DNA of 64,000 nt from Collinsella aerofaciens (GTDB taxonomy: Bacteria > Actinomycetota > Coriobacteriia > Coriobacteriales > Coriobacteriaceae), in assembly GCF_002736145.1 (NCBI RefSeq), contig NZ_CP024160.1:1-64000 (forward strand). Direction: 5' to 3'. The translations under genes were made by a program, and so were the position numbers. The notes under the pieces were generated by a model. It was not told the DNA's origin, did not search any database, and saw nothing but the letters and a program-made list of their open reading frames with translations. This document shows, piece by piece, positions 33,038-59,186 of this stretch. Position 1 is the first letter of the stretch; each line of letters starts with the position of its first letter.

Positions 33038-33064
33038 GTGACAAAGGGACAGTCCCTTTGTCAC
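33038..33064. repeat. perfect 27-base palindrome, GGGACAGTCCC-core repeat family
   Basis: GTGACAAAGGGAC (33038-33050) and GTCCCTTTGTCAC (33052-33064) pair perfectly around one base. It is the tightest member of a group of intergenic palindromes in this window that share a GGGAC..TCC..TTT core. It may also serve as a terminator for the ABC gene. Confidence 0.8.
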
Positions 33065-33089: not shown

Positions 33090-34043
33090 ATGATCCTTTC
33101 GCTGGCCCCTATGGAGGGGATTACCGGGCATGTGTTCCGCCGCGTGCATGCGGAGTGCTTTGGTGCGCTCGACTGCTATTACACGCCGTTTTTGCCGCCG
33201 CCGCGGGTTGGCAATCGTTTTGGTGGCAAGGCGTTTAAGGAGATCGATCCTGCCAACAACCAGGGGCTCAACGTGGTGCCTCAGCTGATGTCCAAGAACG
33301 CGGACGAGTTTGTGTGGGCGGCGCAGGTGCTTGCCGACATGGGCTATCGCGAGGTCAACCTCAACTTGGGTTGCCCTTCGGGAACGGTTGTCGCCAAGGG
33401 CAAGGGCTCGGGTTTCTTGCGCAATCTCGACGAGCTCGAGGTGTTCTTGAGCGATGTGTGCGAGCGGTCGCCGTTGCCGGTATCGGTCAAGACCAGGCTG
33501 GGGCTGGAGAGCGACGACGAATACGAGCGCGTGCTCGATCTGTATTGCCGCATGCCGCTGGCAGAGCTGATTGTGCACCCGCGCGTGCAAAAGGACCGCT
33601 ATACGGGCTCGCCGCGCAAGGAGTTCTATGGCGAAACGCTGGAGCGTGCGCCGTTTCCGGTCGCCTATAACGGTGACATTTTTGATCTTGAGGATATGGA
33701 TGCGCTGGTAGAGGCCTATCCCGACACGCGCCATGTGATGTTGGGGCGTGGCCTGCTCGCGAACCCCGCTCTGGCTCGTATAGTCAACGGCGGTTCTGCT
33801 GCCACGGCAGCCGAGCTGCAGCGCTTCCACGACACGCTGTTCGCAGCCTATGCGGATGAGATTGGCGGCAATGCGGTCTTTCGTATGAAGGAGTGGTGGT
33901 TCTACGCCAAGTGCGCTTTCGCTGACCCCGCTACCGTTCACAAGCTCGTACGTAAGACCAAAAAGGTCGACGAATACCGCGCCGCCGTCGAGCGCGTCTT
34001 TCGCGAGCAGCCACTTGCACCCATAGCCCGCTTCCACGGCTAG
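33090..34043 (+). CDS. dus: tRNA-dihydrouridine synthase family protein
   Basis: A 317-residue FMN-dependent enzyme that reduces uridine to dihydrouridine in tRNA D-loops. The TIM-barrel motifs are APMEGITGHVFRR, the catalytic Cys95 in NLNLGCPSGTVVAKGKGSGFL, VSVKTRLGL, HPRVQKDRYTG, YNGDIFD and MLGRGLLANP. ATG 33090 is used; its ribosome site (GAGAAGAG) is modest. It stands alone between two palindromic repeats, downstream of the large ABC gene. The exact position specificity (DusA, B or C type) is not assigned. Confidence 0.93.
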   Translation: MILSLAPMEGITGHVFRRVHAECFGALDCYYTPFLPPPRVGNRFGGKAFKEIDPANNQGLNVVPQLMSKNADEFVWAAQVLADMGYREVNLNLGCPSGTVVAKGKGSGFLRNLDELEVFLSDVCERSPLPVSVKTRLGLESDDEYERVLDLYCRMPLAELIVHPRVQKDRYTGSPRKEFYGETLERAPFPVAYNGDIFDLEDMDALVEAYPDTRHVMLGRGLLANPALARIVNGGSAATAAELQRFHDTLFAAYADEIGGNAVFRMKEWWFYAKCAFADPATVHKLVRKTKKVDEYRAAVERVFREQPLAPIARFHG

Positions 34044-34044
34044 T

Positions 34045-34098
34045 TAGTCGTTGGACGTTCTTTAACGACTAGTCATTTAAGAACGTCCCCAATGACTA
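34045..34098. repeat. two head-to-head hairpins of the GGGAC-core repeat family
   Basis: TAGTCGTT (34045-34052) pairs with AACGACTA (34064-34071); TAGTCATT (34070-34077) pairs with AATGACTA (34091-34098). The inner sequences are reverse complements of each other (ACGTTCTTT versus AAGAACGTCCCC), so two inverted copies abut. A related copy lies at 35673-35699. Confidence 0.75.
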
Positions 34099-34113
34099 TG
34101 TTGCAAAAAGCAG

Positions 34114-34164
34114 TACGCCAGCATCCAAAGATGTCAAAAAATGTCGACTTTGGATGCTGGCGTA
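34114..34164. repeat. 51-base hairpin element, left copy
   Basis: TACGCCAGCATCCAAAG (34114-34130) pairs perfectly with CTTTGGATGCTGGCGTA (34148-34164). A nearly identical element is at 35728-35778. Each follows a GGGAC-core hairpin, so the two form a cassette present twice, one on each side of the genes between them. Confidence 0.85.
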
Positions 34165-34192
34165 TATGTTTGGGTCGGCGGGGGAGTTGAGT

Positions 34193-34459
34193 CTAGGCAA
34201 TCATTGCATCGAGCGTGATGAGCTCTCTGAGTCGCTCCGTGCGTGTTTGCCCATGGCGCTTTGCCTTCTCGTCAAACGCATCAAGAACCGACTCACCCAC
34301 ACGTGCCGATAAAACAACGCTTGGCTCATCGGAAATCGACGGCCTTCCCAGCTTGATGGTGCGGCCCTTCGGCCACTCATCTTTTTCGTATGCCTCCGCG
34401 GCTTTCTCCAACTCTCCGGGGGCAAACCCCATCATCTTCTCGAGCTGCTTAGCGTCCAT
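34193..34459 (-). CDS. ribbon-helix-helix (CopG-like) protein, possible antitoxin
   Basis: An 88-residue protein. ATG 34459 has GGAGG just upstream; a longer frame to 34534 has none. The N-terminus (ME-like MDAKQLEKMMGFAPGELEKAAEAYEKDEWP) resembles antitoxin dimer arms, and the C-terminus (VVLSARVGESVLDAFDEKAKRHGQTRTERLRELI) is a ribbon-helix-helix DNA-binding motif. No toxin gene is adjacent, so it may be an orphan antitoxin or a small autonomous regulator. It is the first gene inside the repeat-bracketed module. Confidence 0.75.
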   Translation of the reverse strand: MDAKQLEKMMGFAPGELEKAAEAYEKDEWPKGRTIKLGRPSISDEPSVVLSARVGESVLDAFDEKAKRHGQTRTERLRELITLDAMIA

Positions 34460-34573
34460 AGTGCCTCCAATCGATCGACATAATGGCGAGTGTTGGTTCT
34501 CGGAATCTCTTTTTGTATACAGTTTTGTAGACAAAAATACAAGCAGTTAATAGGGCTAAGCAGACTGTTTTGG

Positions 34574-35086
34574 TTAGCTAGCCAATGGGGATTTCAGATT
34601 GGGGTCAGGTGGGTTGATGAATTCTTCTGGAAGCTGAATGGGGTGTTCGCCTCGCATGACACGGGTATAGCTTTGGTTCAGGCTTCTTCTCATGAATATT
34701 TCTGCCTTTTTTGCTTCGTCTGGATGGATGATTGCCTCTTGCCGTGGGACATCAAGCGGAAAGTCTTCCATGAGCTTCTCGTATCCTGGATCGGAGATTC
34801 CTGCGATGCAGTCGATCCAGAGAAAAGGTTGATACAGTCTTGCACCCGCGACGACGGCAAATAGGTCCCCAGCCCTTATAATCGGTTCCTCGTTGGGTTT
34901 GATGTCGCTAAGAGGTCGAGACGCCGTGAAGGTGTTGTCGCGGTAAAGGTCGACTTTGGCTTTGGCTCCACAAACACATACGAGATACTCTAGGGTTTGG
35001 ACTTCTTCGGATTCGGCAATGGCCTTCTCTATACCGGCGATTTCTGCCAAGCTGCTTACTCGAATCAGTGATTCTTGGTATCCCAT
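34574..35086 (-). CDS. hypothetical protein, 170 residues
   Basis: ATG 35086 follows GAGAGGA by 8 bases. The protein is acidic and soluble, with a start SLIRVSSLAEIAGIEKAIAESEE, a cysteine pair (VCVCGAKAKVDLY), a central RAGDLFAVVAGARLYQPFLWID and a C-terminal PEEFINPPDPNL. I do not recognise it. It lies between the two hairpin cassettes with the ribbon-helix-helix gene downstream. Confidence 0.7.
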   Translation of the reverse strand: MGYQESLIRVSSLAEIAGIEKAIAESEEVQTLEYLVCVCGAKAKVDLYRDNTFTASRPLSDIKPNEEPIIRAGDLFAVVAGARLYQPFLWIDCIAGISDPGYEKLMEDFPLDVPRQEAIIHPDEAKKAEIFMRRSLNQSYTRVMRGEHPIQLPEEFINPPDPNLKSPLAS

Positions 35087-35243
35087 GTCTAATTCCTCTC
35101 GTCTTGCTCTAAATAAAGGGGTCGACTGTCTTTTCCACTGCTGCCTCGCGCGTGGCTCTAGGGGTCGGTGGACTCGTCTTCATCAGTCTTCGATGGCGAG
35201 ACCAACTCAATTCATGACATAGTGTGTTTCGAATTAGGGACAC

Positions 35244-35414
35244 CTAATAGAAAAGGGCCGTATTGTCCTTATATGCCTCGACCATCGTCGAGTTGATGAC
35301 ACGTTCAACGTGGGAACGAGCGTGCTCGAGGGTTTTTCTGACAGACGTGTAGACATATTCTTCATCTGGCAGTGCAGGCTCGATGATATTTTGGGTTGAT
35401 AATTGTTTTGCCAT
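35244..35414 (-). pseudogene. truncated DUF1016/PDDEXK-nuclease-like gene start
   Basis: A 56-codon frame from ATG 35414 with AGGAG 8 bases upstream. The segment VYTSVRKTLEHARSHVERVINSTMVEAY resembles the N-terminal helices of DUF1016 (YhcG-like) nucleases, which usually continue for over 300 residues. Here it ends at TAG 35244-35246 with no continuation in any frame, so it is a truncated start. Assignment rests on a short stretch. Confidence 0.5.
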
Positions 35415-35672
35415 AACGATGCACTCCTGTGTGACTCACGGATAACGGAAACGTTTGGTTGTGAGTGCCGTTCTTTGATGGCGACGGCGAACAGGAGCGC
35501 AGCCTGTCTGAGATGGACGAGTGCAGTAACCACCGATCTTACTTACTGAGCTCGCTCCAGCGTGTCATTGGGGACCTCCACAGGAGCTCTCGACCAGTCT
35601 CATGCCTTGGGATGAGTATAACACAGAGAGCAAACATATGTTCTATAAATTTGAGAAACTGAATCCCTACCT

Positions 35673-35699
35673 ACTCATTTAAGTGCGTCCCCAATGAGT
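35673..35699. repeat. GGGAC-core hairpin with compensated arm
   Basis: ACTCATT (35673-35679) pairs with AATGAGT (35693-35699). Compared with TAGTCATT/AATGACTA at 34070-34098, one G-C pair is flipped to C-G in the arms while the inner sequence (TTAAG..CGTCCCC) is conserved. Confidence 0.75.
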
Positions 35700-35727
35700 G
35701 GCTGTGAGGGGCCCACGCAAAAAGCTG

Positions 35728-35778
35728 TACGGCAGCATCCAAAGATGTCGGAAAATGTCGACTTTGGATGCTGACGTA
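35728..35778. repeat. 51-base hairpin element, right copy
   Basis: TACGGCAGCATCCAAAG (35728-35744) pairs with CTTTGGATGCTGACGTA (35762-35778) with one mismatch. It is about 90% identical to the element at 34114-34164 and in the same orientation. Confidence 0.85.
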
Positions 35779-35832
35779 CATGTTTGTGCCGTATGGGTTT
35801 GTGCGTTGGGGCGGGCCGACCGCAATAACACG

Positions 35833-36078
35833 CTAGAGCAGGTTCTTCTGTGCCCAGGTGATGATGTCACTCGATTCGTAGAGTGGTTTGCCGTCGATGA
35901 ACAGGCAGGGAACCTGGCGTTTTCCGCCGACGGCGATGAGCGTCTGCTCGGCATCGGGGTCGGTCGAGATGTTGCGCTCAGGGATGGCCACGCCGTTATC
36001 GGCCAAAAAGCGCTTGACCTTTATGCAATACGGGCAGCCGGTCATAACGTAGAGCGCGAGTTCATGATCAGTAGCCAT
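35833..36078 (-). CDS. glutaredoxin
   Basis: An 81-residue thioredoxin-fold protein with the glutaredoxin active site CPYC (LYVMTGCPYCIKVKRFL), the cis-proline segment QVPCLFIDGKPLYESSDII and a typical length. It reduces glutathione- or thiol-mixed disulfides, or delivers electrons to small reductases. The gene starts near an XRE/zinc-ribbon gene upstream in the same direction (52 bases apart) and lies next to the right hairpin cassette. Confidence 0.93.
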   Translation of the reverse strand: MATDHELALYVMTGCPYCIKVKRFLADNGVAIPERNISTDPDAEQTLIAVGGKRQVPCLFIDGKPLYESSDIITWAQKNLL

Positions 36079-37948: not shown

Positions 37949-39163
37949 ATGAAATACGACTTCACTTCAATCATCGACCGCCACGGCATGGACGCCATCG
38001 CCGTTGACTCCTGGGGTGAGATCCCCGGCATGGCTCCGAACGCACCTGACGAGGGCTTCGACCGCATCCCCATGTGGGTGGCGGACATGAACTTCGCCAC
38101 GGTGCCCACGGTCCAGGAGTACATCATTCAGCGTGCCCAGCACCCCATGTTTGGCTATTTCAATCCGCGCCCCGAGTATTTCGGCCGCATCATCGAATGG
38201 CAGAGTCGCCGCAATGGCGTCGAGGGCCTGCGCCCTGAGCACATCGGCTACGAAAACGGCGTGCTGGGCGGTGTCGTGTCGACGCTGCGCGCGTATGTCC
38301 AGCCGGGCGATGCGGTACTGGTCCACAGCCCCACCTACATTGGCTTTACCAAGTCTATCGAAGCCGCGGGCTATCGCATTGTCCACAGCCCGCTTAAGCT
38401 CGACGATCGGGGCGTGTGGCGCATGGACTTTGAGGACATGGAGCGAAAGCTCGCCCAAAACCACATCCACGCCGCGGTGTTCTGCTCGCCGCACAATCCC
38501 TGCGGCCGCGTATGGGAGCGCGACGAGATCGAGCGCGCCATGGACATCTATCGCCAGCACGATTGCGTGGTGATCTCGGATGAGATTTGGTCCGATATCA
38601 TCCTGCCGGATCACAAGCATATCCCGACGCAGTCGGTGAGCGAGGATGCCCGCATGCGCACGGTTGCCCTCTATGCGCCCAGCAAGACGTTTAACCTGGC
38701 GGGCCTGGTCGGCAGCTACCACATCATCTATAACGAGACGCTGCGCGACCGCGTGTGCGCCGTGTCCAACAAGACCCACTACAACGAGATGAATGTCCTC
38801 TCCATGCATGCGCTTATCGGTGCCTACCAGCCGCAAGGCTACGAGTGGCTCGATGAGCTCAATGAGGTCATCGAGGGCAACGTCGACTACTTCTGCAATT
38901 ACGTGGACAAGCATTTTGAGGGCGTGTCCTATTCGCGTCCGCAGGGCACCTACATGGTGTTTCTGGACTGCACCGAGTGGTGCCGCGAGCATGGCCGCGA
39001 TATTCAGTGGCTGCTCGACGAGGGGGCGCGCGTGGGCGTGGGGTATCAGGACGGCCGCCCGTTCCACGGACCCTGCCACATTCGCGTGAATCTGGCGCTG
39101 CCGCTTTCGCGCGTTAGGGAGGCGTGCGACCGCCTGGACCGCTACGTTTTTAATGCACGGTAA
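37949..39163 (+). CDS. PatB/MalY-type pyridoxal-phosphate C-S lyase
   Basis: A 404-residue aminotransferase-fold enzyme. The PLP lysine is K246 in YAPSKTFNLAG; other family motifs are DSWGEIPGMAPNAP, PMWVADMNFATVPTVQE, HSPTYIGF, CSPHNPCGRVW, ISDEIWSDI and PFHGPCHIRVNLALP. Family members cleave cystathionine or cysteine conjugates (cystathionine beta-lyase, PatB) and can repress maltose genes in MalY. ATG 37949 has GGGAG nearby. It is monocistronic and followed by a strong hairpin. Confidence 0.95.
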   Translation: MKYDFTSIIDRHGMDAIAVDSWGEIPGMAPNAPDEGFDRIPMWVADMNFATVPTVQEYIIQRAQHPMFGYFNPRPEYFGRIIEWQSRRNGVEGLRPEHIGYENGVLGGVVSTLRAYVQPGDAVLVHSPTYIGFTKSIEAAGYRIVHSPLKLDDRGVWRMDFEDMERKLAQNHIHAAVFCSPHNPCGRVWERDEIERAMDIYRQHDCVVISDEIWSDIILPDHKHIPTQSVSEDARMRTVALYAPSKTFNLAGLVGSYHIIYNETLRDRVCAVSNKTHYNEMNVLSMHALIGAYQPQGYEWLDELNEVIEGNVDYFCNYVDKHFEGVSYSRPQGTYMVFLDCTEWCREHGRDIQWLLDEGARVGVGYQDGRPFHGPCHIRVNLALPLSRVREACDRLDRYVFNAR

Positions 39164-39173
39164 GCGGGCGATG

Positions 39174-39216
39174 CATACGGGGCCTTCTGCCGCGTCGGCT
39201 GGAAGGCCCCGTATGG
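39174..39216 (+). terminator. hairpin after the PatB/MalY gene
   Basis: ATACGGGGCCTTC (39175-39187) pairs with GAAGGCCCCGTAT (39202-39214), a 13-bp stem. No T-run follows, so termination efficiency is uncertain. Confidence 0.65.
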
Positions 39217-39307
39217 TAAGGCGTCTGTAACCATTGGGCGCTCGAGTGGTTTCATTTGCTATTATTTTTAACCATTTCAGTCTGTAAGCAGGATCGTCTG
39301 GAGCTCG

Positions 39308-40177
39308 ATGAAAAGACCTCGCCGCTCGGTTGCCATATCGTTGTTTGTTGCGCTTGCGGTAGCGTGTGCCTTTGTCGTAGCGATAGCCGGCTGTTCCGGG
39401 TCGAATGACGGAGCCTCGACGTCTGCATTAGGAGAACTGGACGCCTCGCAAGTCAAAGACGACGACCTTAAGACGCTCAACGTCGGCAGCGACCTCTATC
39501 CACCGTTTGTGTATACCGACGAGTATGGCGATATCGTTGGCCTGGATGTCGAGATATTGACCGAGGCGTTGGCCCGCATTGGTTACAAGCCAAAATACCA
39601 GCTGATCGACTGGGAAAAGAAGAAAGAGCTGCTGGCGAGCGGCGAGCTCGATTGCGTCATGGGCAGCTTTAGCATGACGGGTCGCGAAAGCGAATATCGT
39701 TGGGCCGGCCCGTACCTTGCGAGCCGCCAGGTGGTCGCGGTCAATCCCGAAAGCGACATCTACACGCTCGCCGATCTTGAGGGCAGGGTCGTGGGGGTGC
39801 AGTCCACCACCAAGCCCGAGGGCATTTTGCTCAACCGTACCAATGAAAATGTTCCGCAAATCAAGGAGCTCTACAGCTTCTCGGACCGCTCATACCTGAA
39901 CCCGGCGCTCGTCGAGGGCCTGGTCGACGCTATCGCCGCACATGAGTCCTCGCTGCTCACCTATGAAAAAGACTATGGCGTGACGTATCGCATTCTGAAC
40001 GAGCCGCTGCTGGAGGTTGGTTTGGGCACCGCTTTCGATATCAACGATACGCGCGGCATCGACGTTAAGCTCACCCATGCCTACCAAGAAATGCTTGCCG
40101 ATGGCACCATGGAACGCCTGGTATCAAAGTACTTTGATGACCCTACACCATTTTTGAATATGGAGGGCCTGTCATGA
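39308..40177 (+). CDS. solute-binding lipoprotein acting as sensor input for the adjacent kinase
   Basis: A 289-residue family-3 solute-binding protein. Signal peptide plus lipobox (AIAGCSG) at the N-terminus; then LNVGSDLYPPFVYTDEYGDIVGLDVEILTEAL, CVMGSFSMTGRESEYRWAGPYLASRQVVAV and LADLEGRVVGVQ. It lacks neighbouring permease and ATPase genes; instead its stop overlaps the start of a hybrid sensor kinase (ATGA), so it probably reports an amino-acid-like ligand to that kinase. A related system at 42958-45768 carries the same fold fused to the kinase. Confidence 0.92.
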   Translation: MKRPRRSVAISLFVALAVACAFVVAIAGCSGSNDGASTSALGELDASQVKDDDLKTLNVGSDLYPPFVYTDEYGDIVGLDVEILTEALARIGYKPKYQLIDWEKKKELLASGELDCVMGSFSMTGRESEYRWAGPYLASRQVVAVNPESDIYTLADLEGRVVGVQSTTKPEGILLNRTNENVPQIKELYSFSDRSYLNPALVEGLVDAIAAHESSLLTYEKDYGVTYRILNEPLLEVGLGTAFDINDTRGIDVKLTHAYQEMLADGTMERLVSKYFDDPTPFLNMEGLS

Positions 40178-42366
40178 TCGATGCGCCCGACTACACCGCT
40201 CAGGAGCGGGGCGATCGTTCGGCATGGGTATGGCTCATTGCCGCCCTGTTGGGGATAGCGCTCTCGGTTGTTGCCGGCATGATGAGCTACGGTTACACGA
40301 CAGCCCAGGCCGAGCAGCGATTTGCCGACGTTGTCGATTACGTGGCGACGCAGAGCCTTTCCTACGATGCATTCAATAGCGCCTATACGACCAAAAACCT
40401 GATTCGCGTGATGGAGATCGCCGGAGAGGTGGCGCGCGATATGGAGCGCGACGGCTCGGTGGATAACGCCGCGCTGGAGCAATATGCTGACCAGTTCAAC
40501 GTGAGTGCGCTGATCGTGACGGACGCATCGGGCAACTTGGTGTCCGAGTCCTCGACGGATAACGTGGGTTATGAGTCGCTTGCTATGTATCTCAAAGAAG
40601 CGCCCGTGTTGGAGGTGGCAACCCATCCGCTTAAGTCTTATACCGATCGTATTACGCTTGCGGATGACTCGGTTGCAGACATTGGTTGCGTGACCCGGCA
40701 GGATGGCGAGGGTATCGTTATCGCGGTAAGGCATCAGAGCGCGAAGGCGGTTGCAAGCAATACGCTCAAACTGCAGAGTCTGCTCGAAGGTTATGAAACT
40801 ATCGATAGCGGCAATATCGTGATCGAAAACGATGGCAAGGTCGTTGCGACCAATGCCGTCGAACCCACCGTATTGGGCGTGTTCGACCTGCCCGCGACGG
40901 ACGCCATCATTGTCGACGAAATTAAGGATCGATGCCTGCCCAGTAAAGTCCGACTGGTCAACGTCAACGGCGAGTGGTATTTGGGCACATACGGCAAAGC
41001 GCAAAAATTCTACGTGTACACCTATGCCTCGGCGCAGCGCTACTTTGAGGTCGTCGCGGTTGTTGCTGCCGGCGTGCTGGTGCTCTACAGCGGTGTTGTA
41101 GCCACTGTTGTGATGGTGCGTCGCCGCGCTGATCGTCGACGTTTGACGGACTTGCTGCAGCAGGAGCGCGACTATGGCGACAAGCTGGCAAAGGCGGCGC
41201 GTGAGGCCTCGTCTGCCAACTCGGCAAAGACGGAGTTCCTGCGTCGCATGAGCCACGATCTGCGCACGCCCATCAACGGCATCCGCGGTATGGTTGAGGT
41301 CGGCGATGCCAATGCGGACGATCTGCAAAAGCAGACCGAGTGCCGCTCAAAGATCTGGACGGCATCGGGACTGCTGCTCGACCTTGCGAATGAGGCCCTG
41401 GATATGAGTCGCCTGGAGAGCGGGCAGGTCGACCTGGAGCTTGTTCCCACAAATTTGGTGACCCTCAACCACGAGGTGCGCGATATTCTGGAGCGCCAGG
41501 CCGAGGAACGCCTGGTGACAATTATCTGCGATCAGCAGACGCTTAATCATCCCTATGCGCGGGTGAGCGTGACGCACCTCAAGCGCTTGTTGCTCAATAT
41601 TGCCGGCAATGCCGTCAAGTACAACCGCCGGGGCGGCTATGTTCGCCTGGTGTGCCGCGAGGTGGAGCCAGCGGATGGCGTTCCTGTCTATGAATACACG
41701 ATCGCCGATAACGGTATTGGCATGAGCGAGGAGTTCCAACAGCACCTCTACGAGCCGTTTTGTCGCGAGGAGCAGCAGGTGGAAGGCGCTTCATCGGGAA
41801 CTGGCCTGGGTGCGCCTATTGCTAAACAGTTGGTCGAGCTTATGGGCGGAACCATGAGTTTTACGAGCGTCTTGGGGCAGGGGACGACGTTTACCATCCG
41901 TCTGCCGTTTGAGAAGTGCAAGCGCTCCGAGATTCCTCAGGCTGTGCGCGTGGACGCGGGCGACGGCGATGCGCTCCAGGGCTTGCGTGTTTTGCTCGTA
42001 GAGGATAACGACCTGAATGCCGAGATTGCACAGTTTACGCTCGCCCGTGCCGGTGCCGTCGTGACGCATGCTAAGGATGGTGAGTCTGCCGTCGAGATGT
42101 TTGCCGCGAGCGCGCCTCACGAGTACGACGTGGTGTTGATGGACATCATGATGCCCGGTATCGATGGCCTTGAGGCCACGCGTCGGATTCGAGCACTCGA
42201 TCGCGATGATGCCGCGACCACGCCGATCATCGCCGTGAGCGCCAACGCCTTTGCCGACGATCGCAGGCTTTCGCGTGAGGCGGGCATGAACGCGCACCTG
42301 AGTAAACCAGTGAGTTCGCAGGAGCTCGTTGAGGCGCTTGCGCACATAGCCGCCGACGCTTCATAA
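40174..42366 (+). CDS. hybrid sensor histidine kinase / response regulator
   Basis: A 730-residue membrane protein. Helix 1 (about 17-40) and helix 2 (about 293-317) flank an extracytoplasmic sensor domain. HisKA carries H361 in RMSHDLRTPINGIRGM; HATPase motifs follow (NIAGNAVKYNRRGG, DNGIGMSEEF, GTGLGAPIAKQLVELMGGT); a receiver domain ends the protein (VLLVEDNDLNAEIAQ, D657 in MDIMMPGIDG, NAHLSKPV). No output domain or phosphotransfer domain is fused, so the signal goes to a partner elsewhere. It is co-translated with the upstream solute-binding lipoprotein. Confidence 0.95.
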   Translation: MIDAPDYTAQERGDRSAWVWLIAALLGIALSVVAGMMSYGYTTAQAEQRFADVVDYVATQSLSYDAFNSAYTTKNLIRVMEIAGEVARDMERDGSVDNAALEQYADQFNVSALIVTDASGNLVSESSTDNVGYESLAMYLKEAPVLEVATHPLKSYTDRITLADDSVADIGCVTRQDGEGIVIAVRHQSAKAVASNTLKLQSLLEGYETIDSGNIVIENDGKVVATNAVEPTVLGVFDLPATDAIIVDEIKDRCLPSKVRLVNVNGEWYLGTYGKAQKFYVYTYASAQRYFEVVAVVAAGVLVLYSGVVATVVMVRRRADRRRLTDLLQQERDYGDKLAKAAREASSANSAKTEFLRRMSHDLRTPINGIRGMVEVGDANADDLQKQTECRSKIWTASGLLLDLANEALDMSRLESGQVDLELVPTNLVTLNHEVRDILERQAEERLVTIICDQQTLNHPYARVSVTHLKRLLLNIAGNAVKYNRRGGYVRLVCREVEPADGVPVYEYTIADNGIGMSEEFQQHLYEPFCREEQQVEGASSGTGLGAPIAKQLVELMGGTMSFTSVLGQGTTFTIRLPFEKCKRSEIPQAVRVDAGDGDALQGLRVLLVEDNDLNAEIAQFTLARAGAVVTHAKDGESAVEMFAASAPHEYDVVLMDIMMPGIDGLEATRRIRALDRDDAATTPIIAVSANAFADDRRLSREAGMNAHLSKPVSSQELVEALAHIAADAS

Positions 42367-42368
42367 GC

Positions 42369-42408
42369 ATATGGCCCGGTTTCAAGGTGGGTTGGAACCG
42401 GGCCATAT
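42369..42408. terminator. bidirectional terminator between convergent genes
   Basis: ATATGGCCCGGTT (42369-42381) pairs perfectly with AACCGGGCCATAT (42396-42408). It separates the kinase gene from the leftward pyridoxamine-oxidase-like gene. Confidence 0.85.
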
Positions 42409-42435
42409 TGCTATTGATGAGGCTTGCTGAGGGGC

Positions 42436-42915
42436 TTACTTTTCGTGAATCTGCTTACCGCAGAGATGCTCAATCGTAATCTCGTAAAGCTGGACGCCCT
42501 TGATGTCTTTGGCGATCTCCTCCTCGACTTCTTCGGCAGAAGGGTAGTACCTAAGCGCGAGCTGACGGACTTTGTCCTCGATAAACGCAGGCGCCTCATC
42601 TACCAGGCGACAACGACCAAAGACAACGGTACTCATAACGTAGGGAGCCCAGTCGCCGTCCTGGTACCACTCGTTTCCGTAAACGGTAAAGCAGACCTTG
42701 TCATCGCGCTTGAGTGCGTCGACCTTGTGGCCGGCTTTGGCGCCATGGAAATAAATCTTGTCGTGCTCGGCATCGAAGAAGTAGTTGACGGGAATGGCGT
42801 ACGGGTAGCCATCGTCGCCGTTGACGGCAAAGACGCCGCGCTTGCAGGTAGCGAGCAGTTCGCGCGCTTCCTCGTCAGTGATGGCGCGTTTCTTTCGACG
42901 TAAGGGCCTAAACAT
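42436..42915 (-). CDS. pyridoxamine 5'-phosphate oxidase-family (flavin/split-barrel) protein
   Basis: A 159-residue split-barrel protein. ATG 42915 is chosen (AAAGGA upstream); an in-frame ATG at 42954 lacks a site. Motifs: ITDEEARELLATCKRGVFAVNGDDGYPYAIPVNYFF, KIYFHGAKAGHKVDAL, YVMSTVVFGRCRLVD and a C-terminal EIAKDIKGVQLYEITIEHLCGKQ. This is the NimA/FMN-binding subgroup, thought to bind flavin and reduce small compounds. It starts 43 bases downstream of the large fused sensor kinase gene stop. Confidence 0.9.
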   Translation of the reverse strand: MFRPLRRKKRAITDEEARELLATCKRGVFAVNGDDGYPYAIPVNYFFDAEHDKIYFHGAKAGHKVDALKRDDKVCFTVYGNEWYQDGDWAPYVMSTVVFGRCRLVDEAPAFIEDKVRQLALRYYPSAEEVEEEIAKDIKGVQLYEITIEHLCGKQIHEK

Positions 42916-45849: not shown

Positions 45850-45907
45850 CCGGCAGTTGGGGACAGTCCCTTTCTACCGGCACAAAAGGAACGTCCCTAA
45901 CTGCCGG
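45850..45907. repeat. 58-base imperfect palindrome of the GGGAC-core family
   Basis: CCGGCAGTT (45850-45858) pairs with AACTGCCGG (45899-45907). The interior carries GGGGACAGTCCCTTTCTACCGG and its imperfect reverse complement (AAAAGGAACGTCCC). It lies between divergent genes. Confidence 0.75.
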
Positions 45908-45959
45908 TTGTGGGACAATACCGAGCGAACGTGATTGGTTGTCCGTGGAAGGGGTCGCA

Positions 45960-59064: not shown

Positions 59065-59132
59065 ACGCTCTCAATCTCTAATATGCTCTTTCGCGCTTAT
59101 TTGCGCAGACGATGATACTCCTAATGCAGCCA

Positions 59133-59186
59133 GCCGGCACTTAGGGACGTTCCTTTTCTGCCGGCAGCTGGGGACACTCCTTGTCT
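59133..59186. repeat. GGGAC-core palindromic repeat upstream of rlmA
   Basis: GCCGGCACTTAGGGACGTTCCTTTTCTGCCGGC and a following GGGGACACTCC repeat the shared core of this repeat family. The flanking GCCGGCA/TGCCGGC arms are self-complementary. It lies between divergent genes. Confidence 0.65.

What the first reader, a model, noticed from the sequence alone, without database searches (positions are those of the whole stretch)
34045..35778. Two matching hairpin cassettes bracket a small module of regulators and a broken nuclease
A GGGAC-core hairpin followed by a near-identical 51-base hairpin occurs at both 34045-34164 and 35673-35778 in the same order and orientation. Between them lie a ribbon-helix-helix protein, a protein of unknown function and a truncated DUF1016-like nuclease. 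This looks like a composite mobile or rearranging unit with hairpin ends. No target-site duplication or transposase was seen.
Basis: partly seen in the sequence, partly recalled or inferred. Interest (0 to 1): 0.6.

Follow-up and report, generated by a model that had tools for sequence, protein, structure and literature searches.

The report
Hairpin-bracketed swappable cassette in Collinsella
In a group of human-gut Collinsella species, one gap between two housekeeping genes is either empty, holds one special hairpin, or holds small toxin/defence-like genes bracketed by two copies of that hairpin, and the contents appear to be swapped between strains by ordinary DNA recombination rather than by a jumping gene.

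Summary
The repeat pair is real. Hairpin B (core 34121-34157 and 35735-35771) occurs only twice in this 2.31-Mb Collinsella genome, in 19 of 45 genomes of the genus, and nearly always in the same dus-grx gap. The GGGAC hairpin A is different: a dispersed REP (38 genome hits) that also flanks a RAYT transposase gene. Its right-hand copy is a degenerate half. In relatives the gap is empty but for A (71-73 bp; G004, G010, G011, G033), holds one A-B (G027, G032), or holds A-B-cargo-A-B with different cargo. G002 carries two cassettes in tandem. In two near-isogenic pairs (G003/G004, G005/G027) substitutions cluster within about 300 bp of the gap, and G003's dus 3' end matches a different genome. 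One left hairpin (G008) is a recombinant inside B. Best reading: a hotspot whose cargo is exchanged by homologous recombination through dus, grx and the hairpin repeats; B is a conserved, covarying hairpin, perhaps a terminator. The cargo is a decayed toxin-antitoxin/DUF1016-type module: the RHH gene is a retained antitoxin-like gene under purifying selection, its partner is deleted, and the nuclease is a 43-aa remnant.

The parts
33090..34043 (+). dus gene (tRNA-dihydrouridine synthase), left conserved flank; its 3' 300 bp is part of recombination tracts in relatives
   Evidence: Pfam Dus 8.2e-35; close orthologue upstream of the gap in 24 close genomes; tracts
34045..34100 (.). Hairpin A, left: intact REP-like palindrome, present alone in the 'empty' genomes
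   Evidence: z -6.0; empty sites; dispersed family
34103..34177 (.). Hairpin B, left copy (core 34121-34157)
   Evidence: covariation
34106..35832 (.). Interval absent from genomes G010, G011 and G033 (G004 nearly the same)
34193..34459 (-). RHH (CopG-type) antitoxin-like gene, 88 aa; intact in all 15 genomes that carry it, purifying selection
   Evidence: RHH_1; pN/pS 0.09; close copies only at this locus in the genus
34479..34505 (.). Deletion scar where relatives G022, G002 and G007 carry an 88-aa toxin-like gene (about 264 bp missing here)
34510..34537 (.). TTTTTGTATACAGTTTTGTAGACAAAAA palindrome, probable RHH operator (inference)
   Evidence: sequence; conserved upstream of RHH in the toxin-lost genomes
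34574..35086 (-). 170-aa protein of unknown function; unique to this genome in the genus, homologues in other Coriobacteriia genera
35244..35414 (-). DUF1016_N remnant (56 aa ORF, about 43 aa homologous), nuclease domain missing
35393..35699 (-). Upstream/promoter region of the nuclease gene shared with G022, G002 and G007 (91-95%)
35671..35699 (.). Hairpin A, right: degenerate half REP
35717..35791 (.). Hairpin B, right copy (core 35735-35771)
35833..36078 (-). grx (glutaredoxin-like) gene, right conserved flank
   Evidence: Pfam Glutaredoxin 1.4e-17

Best explanation
The feature is one state of a polymorphic cassette locus fixed between the convergent genes dus and grx in the Collinsella aerofaciens complex. 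Each cargo is bracketed by direct A-B repeats: A is a common REP, B a locus-specific conserved hairpin. Cargo is gained, lost and replaced mainly by homologous recombination with DNA of other strains. Crossovers fall in the 3' end of dus, in grx, and in the repeats themselves, which act as portable homology at each cassette edge; recombination between two repeats can join cassettes or collapse them to one hairpin. B probably also acts as a bidirectional transcription terminator or insulator, which would explain why it is kept. The window's cargo descends from a toxin-like / RHH / DUF1016-like module: the 88-aa partner is deleted, the RHH antitoxin-like gene is kept under purifying selection, and the nuclease has been replaced by a fragment plus a 170-aa gene. 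Shown: locus states, B limited to this locus, conserved structure of B, recombination tracts, one recombinant B, REP identity of A. Inferred: terminator role, order of events, repeat-mediated collapse, function of the cargo.
For: B occurs 2x in the whole genome and in 19 of 45 Collinsella genomes; only Collinsella contigs in a GTDB-wide exact scan and none in viral contigs. States empty/single/pair/two cassettes with the same flanks. Near-isogenic pair G003 (cargo) and G004 (empty): 22 of 24 left and 22 of 25 right substitutions lie in the 300 bp next to the gap (p 4e-9 and 2e-19); G003's last 300 bp of dus is 0.3% from G012, while the next 600 bp is 0.3% from G004. G005 (cargo) and G027 (single): 13 of 13 left substitutions in 300 bp. 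G008's left hairpin has the 5' flank of G027 (0 of 40 differences) and the 3' flank of the window's left copy (1 of 40; next best 11), so a crossover fell inside B. G022's right junction is inside A. B covariation: 4 pairs changed on both sides, 98.7% of cells paired, above 500 shuffles (1 of 500 reached the pair count) and slid controls. RHH pN/pS 0.09; 88-aa gene next to RHH at most sampled loci, several in other genera.
Against: Only two near-isogenic cargo/no-cargo pairs are available, and none includes the window genome. General recombination is frequent across this region (distance correlations between adjacent blocks are low everywhere), so the gap is not shown to recombine more than its surroundings. 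B lacks a long T run after the stem and the terminator scan did not call it. How the direct repeat pair first arose is not explained.
Confidence: 0.72

Rival explanations
1. Site-specific cassette system: A-B (or B) is a recombination site used by an enzyme encoded elsewhere (for example the RAYT transposase acting on REP A), which excises and inserts cassettes, integron-like.
For: Direct repeats on both sides of nearly every cargo; two cassettes in tandem in G002; a RAYT flanked by the same REP family in this genome; homologues of the 170-aa gene lie in REP-RAYT arrays at 2 of 7 loci; sequence and structure of B are conserved.
Against: B is never at another locus; presence/absence switches carry substitution tracts in the flanks; B crossovers leave mismatched stems, as homologous recombination would.
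Confidence: 0.1
2. Plain intramolecular deletion/duplication: the pair is an old tandem duplication of a terminator, and the cargo is lost by recA-dependent recombination between the direct repeats, without exchange between strains.
For: Single-hairpin genomes have the left flank of the left copy and the right flank of the right copy (G027), as a collapse predicts.
Against: Cargo of unrelated origin occupies the same gap (SirTM/macro block in G002 and G013), and near-isogenic pairs differ in the flanks too.
Confidence: 0.13
3. Autonomous composite mobile element with hairpin ends.
For: Bracketing hairpins; precise absence in relatives.
Against: No transposase in the window cargo; no copy at a second site in 45 genomes; REP A is dispersed without modules.
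Confidence: 0.04

Closest known systems
[quoted passage not shown] 2017, PMC5635113)
   Same: Variable cargo between the same two core genes, no recombinase of its own in the window cargo, recombination tracts in the flanking genes.
   Different: Here nearly every cargo is bracketed by direct copies of a locus-specific, structurally conserved hairpin that is itself a crossover point.
REP / RAYT (TnpA-REP) repeats (PMC2817692, PMC3116915)
   Same: Hairpin A is a dispersed intergenic palindrome and flanks a Y1_Tnp gene in this genome.
   Different: Here a REP forms part of the cassette boundary; hairpin B is not a REP (two copies, one locus).
Genomic islands in dusA (Farrugia et al. 2015, PMC4482086)
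   Same: A dus gene borders the island site.
   Different: Those integrate within the 5' end of dusA with an integrase; here the site is past the 3' end and no integrase is present.
Integron gene cassettes with attC hairpins
   Same: Small cargo separated by direct hairpin repeats, tandem cassettes possible.
   Different: No integrase seen in the cargo, a single locus, repeats on both sides rather than one per cassette (comparison from general knowledge).

Membership tests
Homologous-recombination hotspot | Different gene content between the same two core genes in relatives | tested here: met
Homologous-recombination hotspot | No recombinase in the cargo | tested here: met
   Window cargo has none; IS110 and IS3-like transposases in G007 look like later insertions
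Homologous-recombination hotspot | Recombination tracts in the flanking core genes tied to presence or absence of cargo | tested here: met
   Two strain pairs
Homologous-recombination hotspot | Flanking genes recombine more than the average core gene | tested here: inconclusive
   Recombination is high across all blocks near the locus
REP of a RAYT (hairpin A) | Many palindromic intergenic copies | tested here: met
   38 hits, reversed control 0
REP of a RAYT (hairpin A) | Same repeats flank a RAYT gene in the genome | tested here: met
   Y1_Tnp at 760 kb with matching repeats at 759.6 and 760.6 kb
REP of a RAYT (hairpin A) | Mobilised by the RAYT | not testable with these tools
   needs experiment
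Composite transposon / transposable unit | Transposase in the element | tested here: not met
Composite transposon / transposable unit | Copies at more than one site | tested here: not met
Composite transposon / transposable unit | Target-site duplication | tested here: inconclusive
   Junction GTTGCA/GCA in some empty sites, no consistent duplication
Integron cassette array | Integron integrase acting on attC sites; cassettes usable at several integrons | tested here: not met
   No integrase in the cargo or beside it; B at one locus only. A genome-wide integrase search was not made
Type II toxin-antitoxin pair (ancestral cargo) | Small toxin-like gene directly next to an RHH gene, conserved in other genomes | tested here: met
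   the window copy lacks the partner
Type II toxin-antitoxin pair (ancestral cargo) | Toxicity of the partner, neutralised by RHH | not testable with these tools
   no Pfam match for the 88-aa protein

The most novel reading that the evidence does not exclude
The A-B hairpin pair is a true cassette boundary: a hairpin recombination site, perhaps nicked at REP A by a RAYT acting in trans, that lets this bacterium capture, stack and release defence or toxin-antitoxin genes at one chromosomal bay without a dedicated integrase.
Probability: 0.1. Interest if true: 0.75.

Novelty: new variant of a known kind. Interest (0 to 1): 0.42.

Why it matters
Many bacterial hotspots lack integrases and how their contents turn over is inferred mostly statistically. 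Here near-isogenic full/empty pairs, a recombinant hairpin and a two-cassette array show individual exchange events, with conserved direct hairpin repeats as built-in homology. It also offers a clean case of an antitoxin-like regulator kept under selection after its partner was lost.

Tried and rejected
Rfam found no known RNA family at the locus. The terminator scan did not call either hairpin, so the terminator role stays inferred. BrnT or another known toxin family for the 88-aa partner was not supported by Pfam; a PDB sequence match was only E 0.11. No plasmid or phage source for the RHH gene, no plasmid source for the 170-aa gene, and no viral-contig source for the 170-aa and 88-aa genes. 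Block-to-block distance correlation could not single out the gap as a hotter recombination point than its neighbours. No paper on this locus in Collinsella was found in the held library.

Full report
Observation. Hairpin A (34045-34100) followed by hairpin B (34103-34177) recurs as a half A (35671-35699) and B (35717-35791) in the same order and orientation. B folds strongly at both places; A only on the left. Chance matches in the window are essentially zero.

Genome and genus. The window lies in a one-contig 2.31-Mb genome whose relatives are Collinsella. B occurs exactly twice, both here. In 45 genomes of the genus it occurs in 19, usually two copies about 1.1 to 5 kb apart. An exact scan of about 85,000 species genomes found it only in Collinsella, and viral contigs gave none. 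A, in contrast, is a dispersed REP: 38 matches in this genome against 0 for the reversed control, including copies on both sides of a Y1_Tnp (RAYT) gene at 760 kb.

Locus states. With dus and grx as anchors, the gap is 71-73 bp (70-73 as cut) and holds only A in G004, G010, G011 and G033. It holds one A-B in G027 and G032. It holds A-B-cargo-A-B in G000, G001, G003, G005-G008, G013, G019, G020, G025, G034 and G036 (in G019 an insertion has removed part of the right copy), and apparently in G035 and G012, where contigs break at the hairpin. It is A-B-cargo-A in G022. G002 has a SirTM/macro-domain block and then the RHH block, each ending at A-B; G013 has the SirTM/macro block alone between two A-B copies. 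The window interval 34106-35832 is missing in the empty genomes. G009 is unresolved: its contig ends in an insertion within A.

Cargo. G022 and G002 share the fullest module: RHH, an 88-aa partner and a 428-aa protein weakly like DUF1016 (PADLOC PDC-S02). The window has lost about 264 bp covering the 88-aa gene, and most of the large gene is replaced by 817 bp containing a DUF1016_N remnant and the 170-aa gene. RHH is 88 aa and intact in all 15 carriers, with pN/pS 0.09 overall and 0.12 in those without the partner. The 88-aa gene sits directly before an RHH gene at most of the 16 sampled loci, several in other genera, so the pair looks like a toxin-antitoxin operon; toxicity is inference. In one other genus the 170-aa gene follows an intact DUF1016_N+YhcG_C gene.

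Mechanism. G003 (cargo) and G004 (empty) are almost identical from 0.3 to about 3 kb on the right and 0.3 to 0.9 kb on the left, yet differ at 22 sites on each side within 300 bp of the gap. G003's last 300 bp of dus matches G012 instead. G005 (cargo) and G027 (single) show the same on the left (13 of 13). This is the mark of homologous replacement by donor DNA. G008's left B joins the upstream flank of G027 to the downstream flank of the window's left copy, so a crossover fell inside B, which also explains stems whose arms do not match. G022's right junction is inside A. Recombination is common throughout the region, so extra heat at this gap is not proven.

Hairpin B. Across 27 distinct copies 98.7% of pair cells are standard pairs and 4 pairs changed on both sides, more than in nearly all shuffles and all slid controls. 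Exact 8-nt arm matches are 18 of 31 against 9 expected on shuffling. Something therefore keeps the hairpin. A bidirectional terminator between convergent genes is the simplest guess: A-tract before and T-tract after the stem, but short. It was not called by the scan.

Comparison. The behaviour matches hotspots that turn over by recombination at flanking core genes (PMC5635113). The bracketing conserved hairpins and the stacked cassettes are the new part. It is not a transposon by the tests made, and an integron-like or RAYT-driven system is not excluded but unsupported.

Noticed in passing
L153 1438-2398; L159 1120-2902: Homologues of the window's 170-aa gene in two other genera lie between REP repeats next to a RAYT transposase gene (2 of 7 loci), a possible REP-bounded passenger gene.
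   Followed up: partly
window 33038-33064: A perfect 13-bp inverted repeat (GTGACAAAGGGAC/GTCCCTTTGTCAC) sits exactly where synteny upstream of dus breaks in several relatives, hinting at a second variable bay on the other side of dus.
   Followed up: no
G007 (L036), G009 (L082): In G007 an IS110-family element (Pfam) is inserted in both A hairpins, in the left copy right after GAACGTCC; the G009 contig ends in the same sequence at the same point of A.
   Followed up: partly
window 39151-42437: Another stretch right of the locus that is missing or replaced in many relatives.
   Followed up: no
window 45861-45910 and 59131-59180: 50-nt inverted repeat pair with GGGAC/GTCCC cores, probably further REP-family members.
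   Followed up: no
G039:C1:1329449-1338502: Two dus copies (79% identical to the window's) about 8 kb apart in one genome.
   Followed up: no
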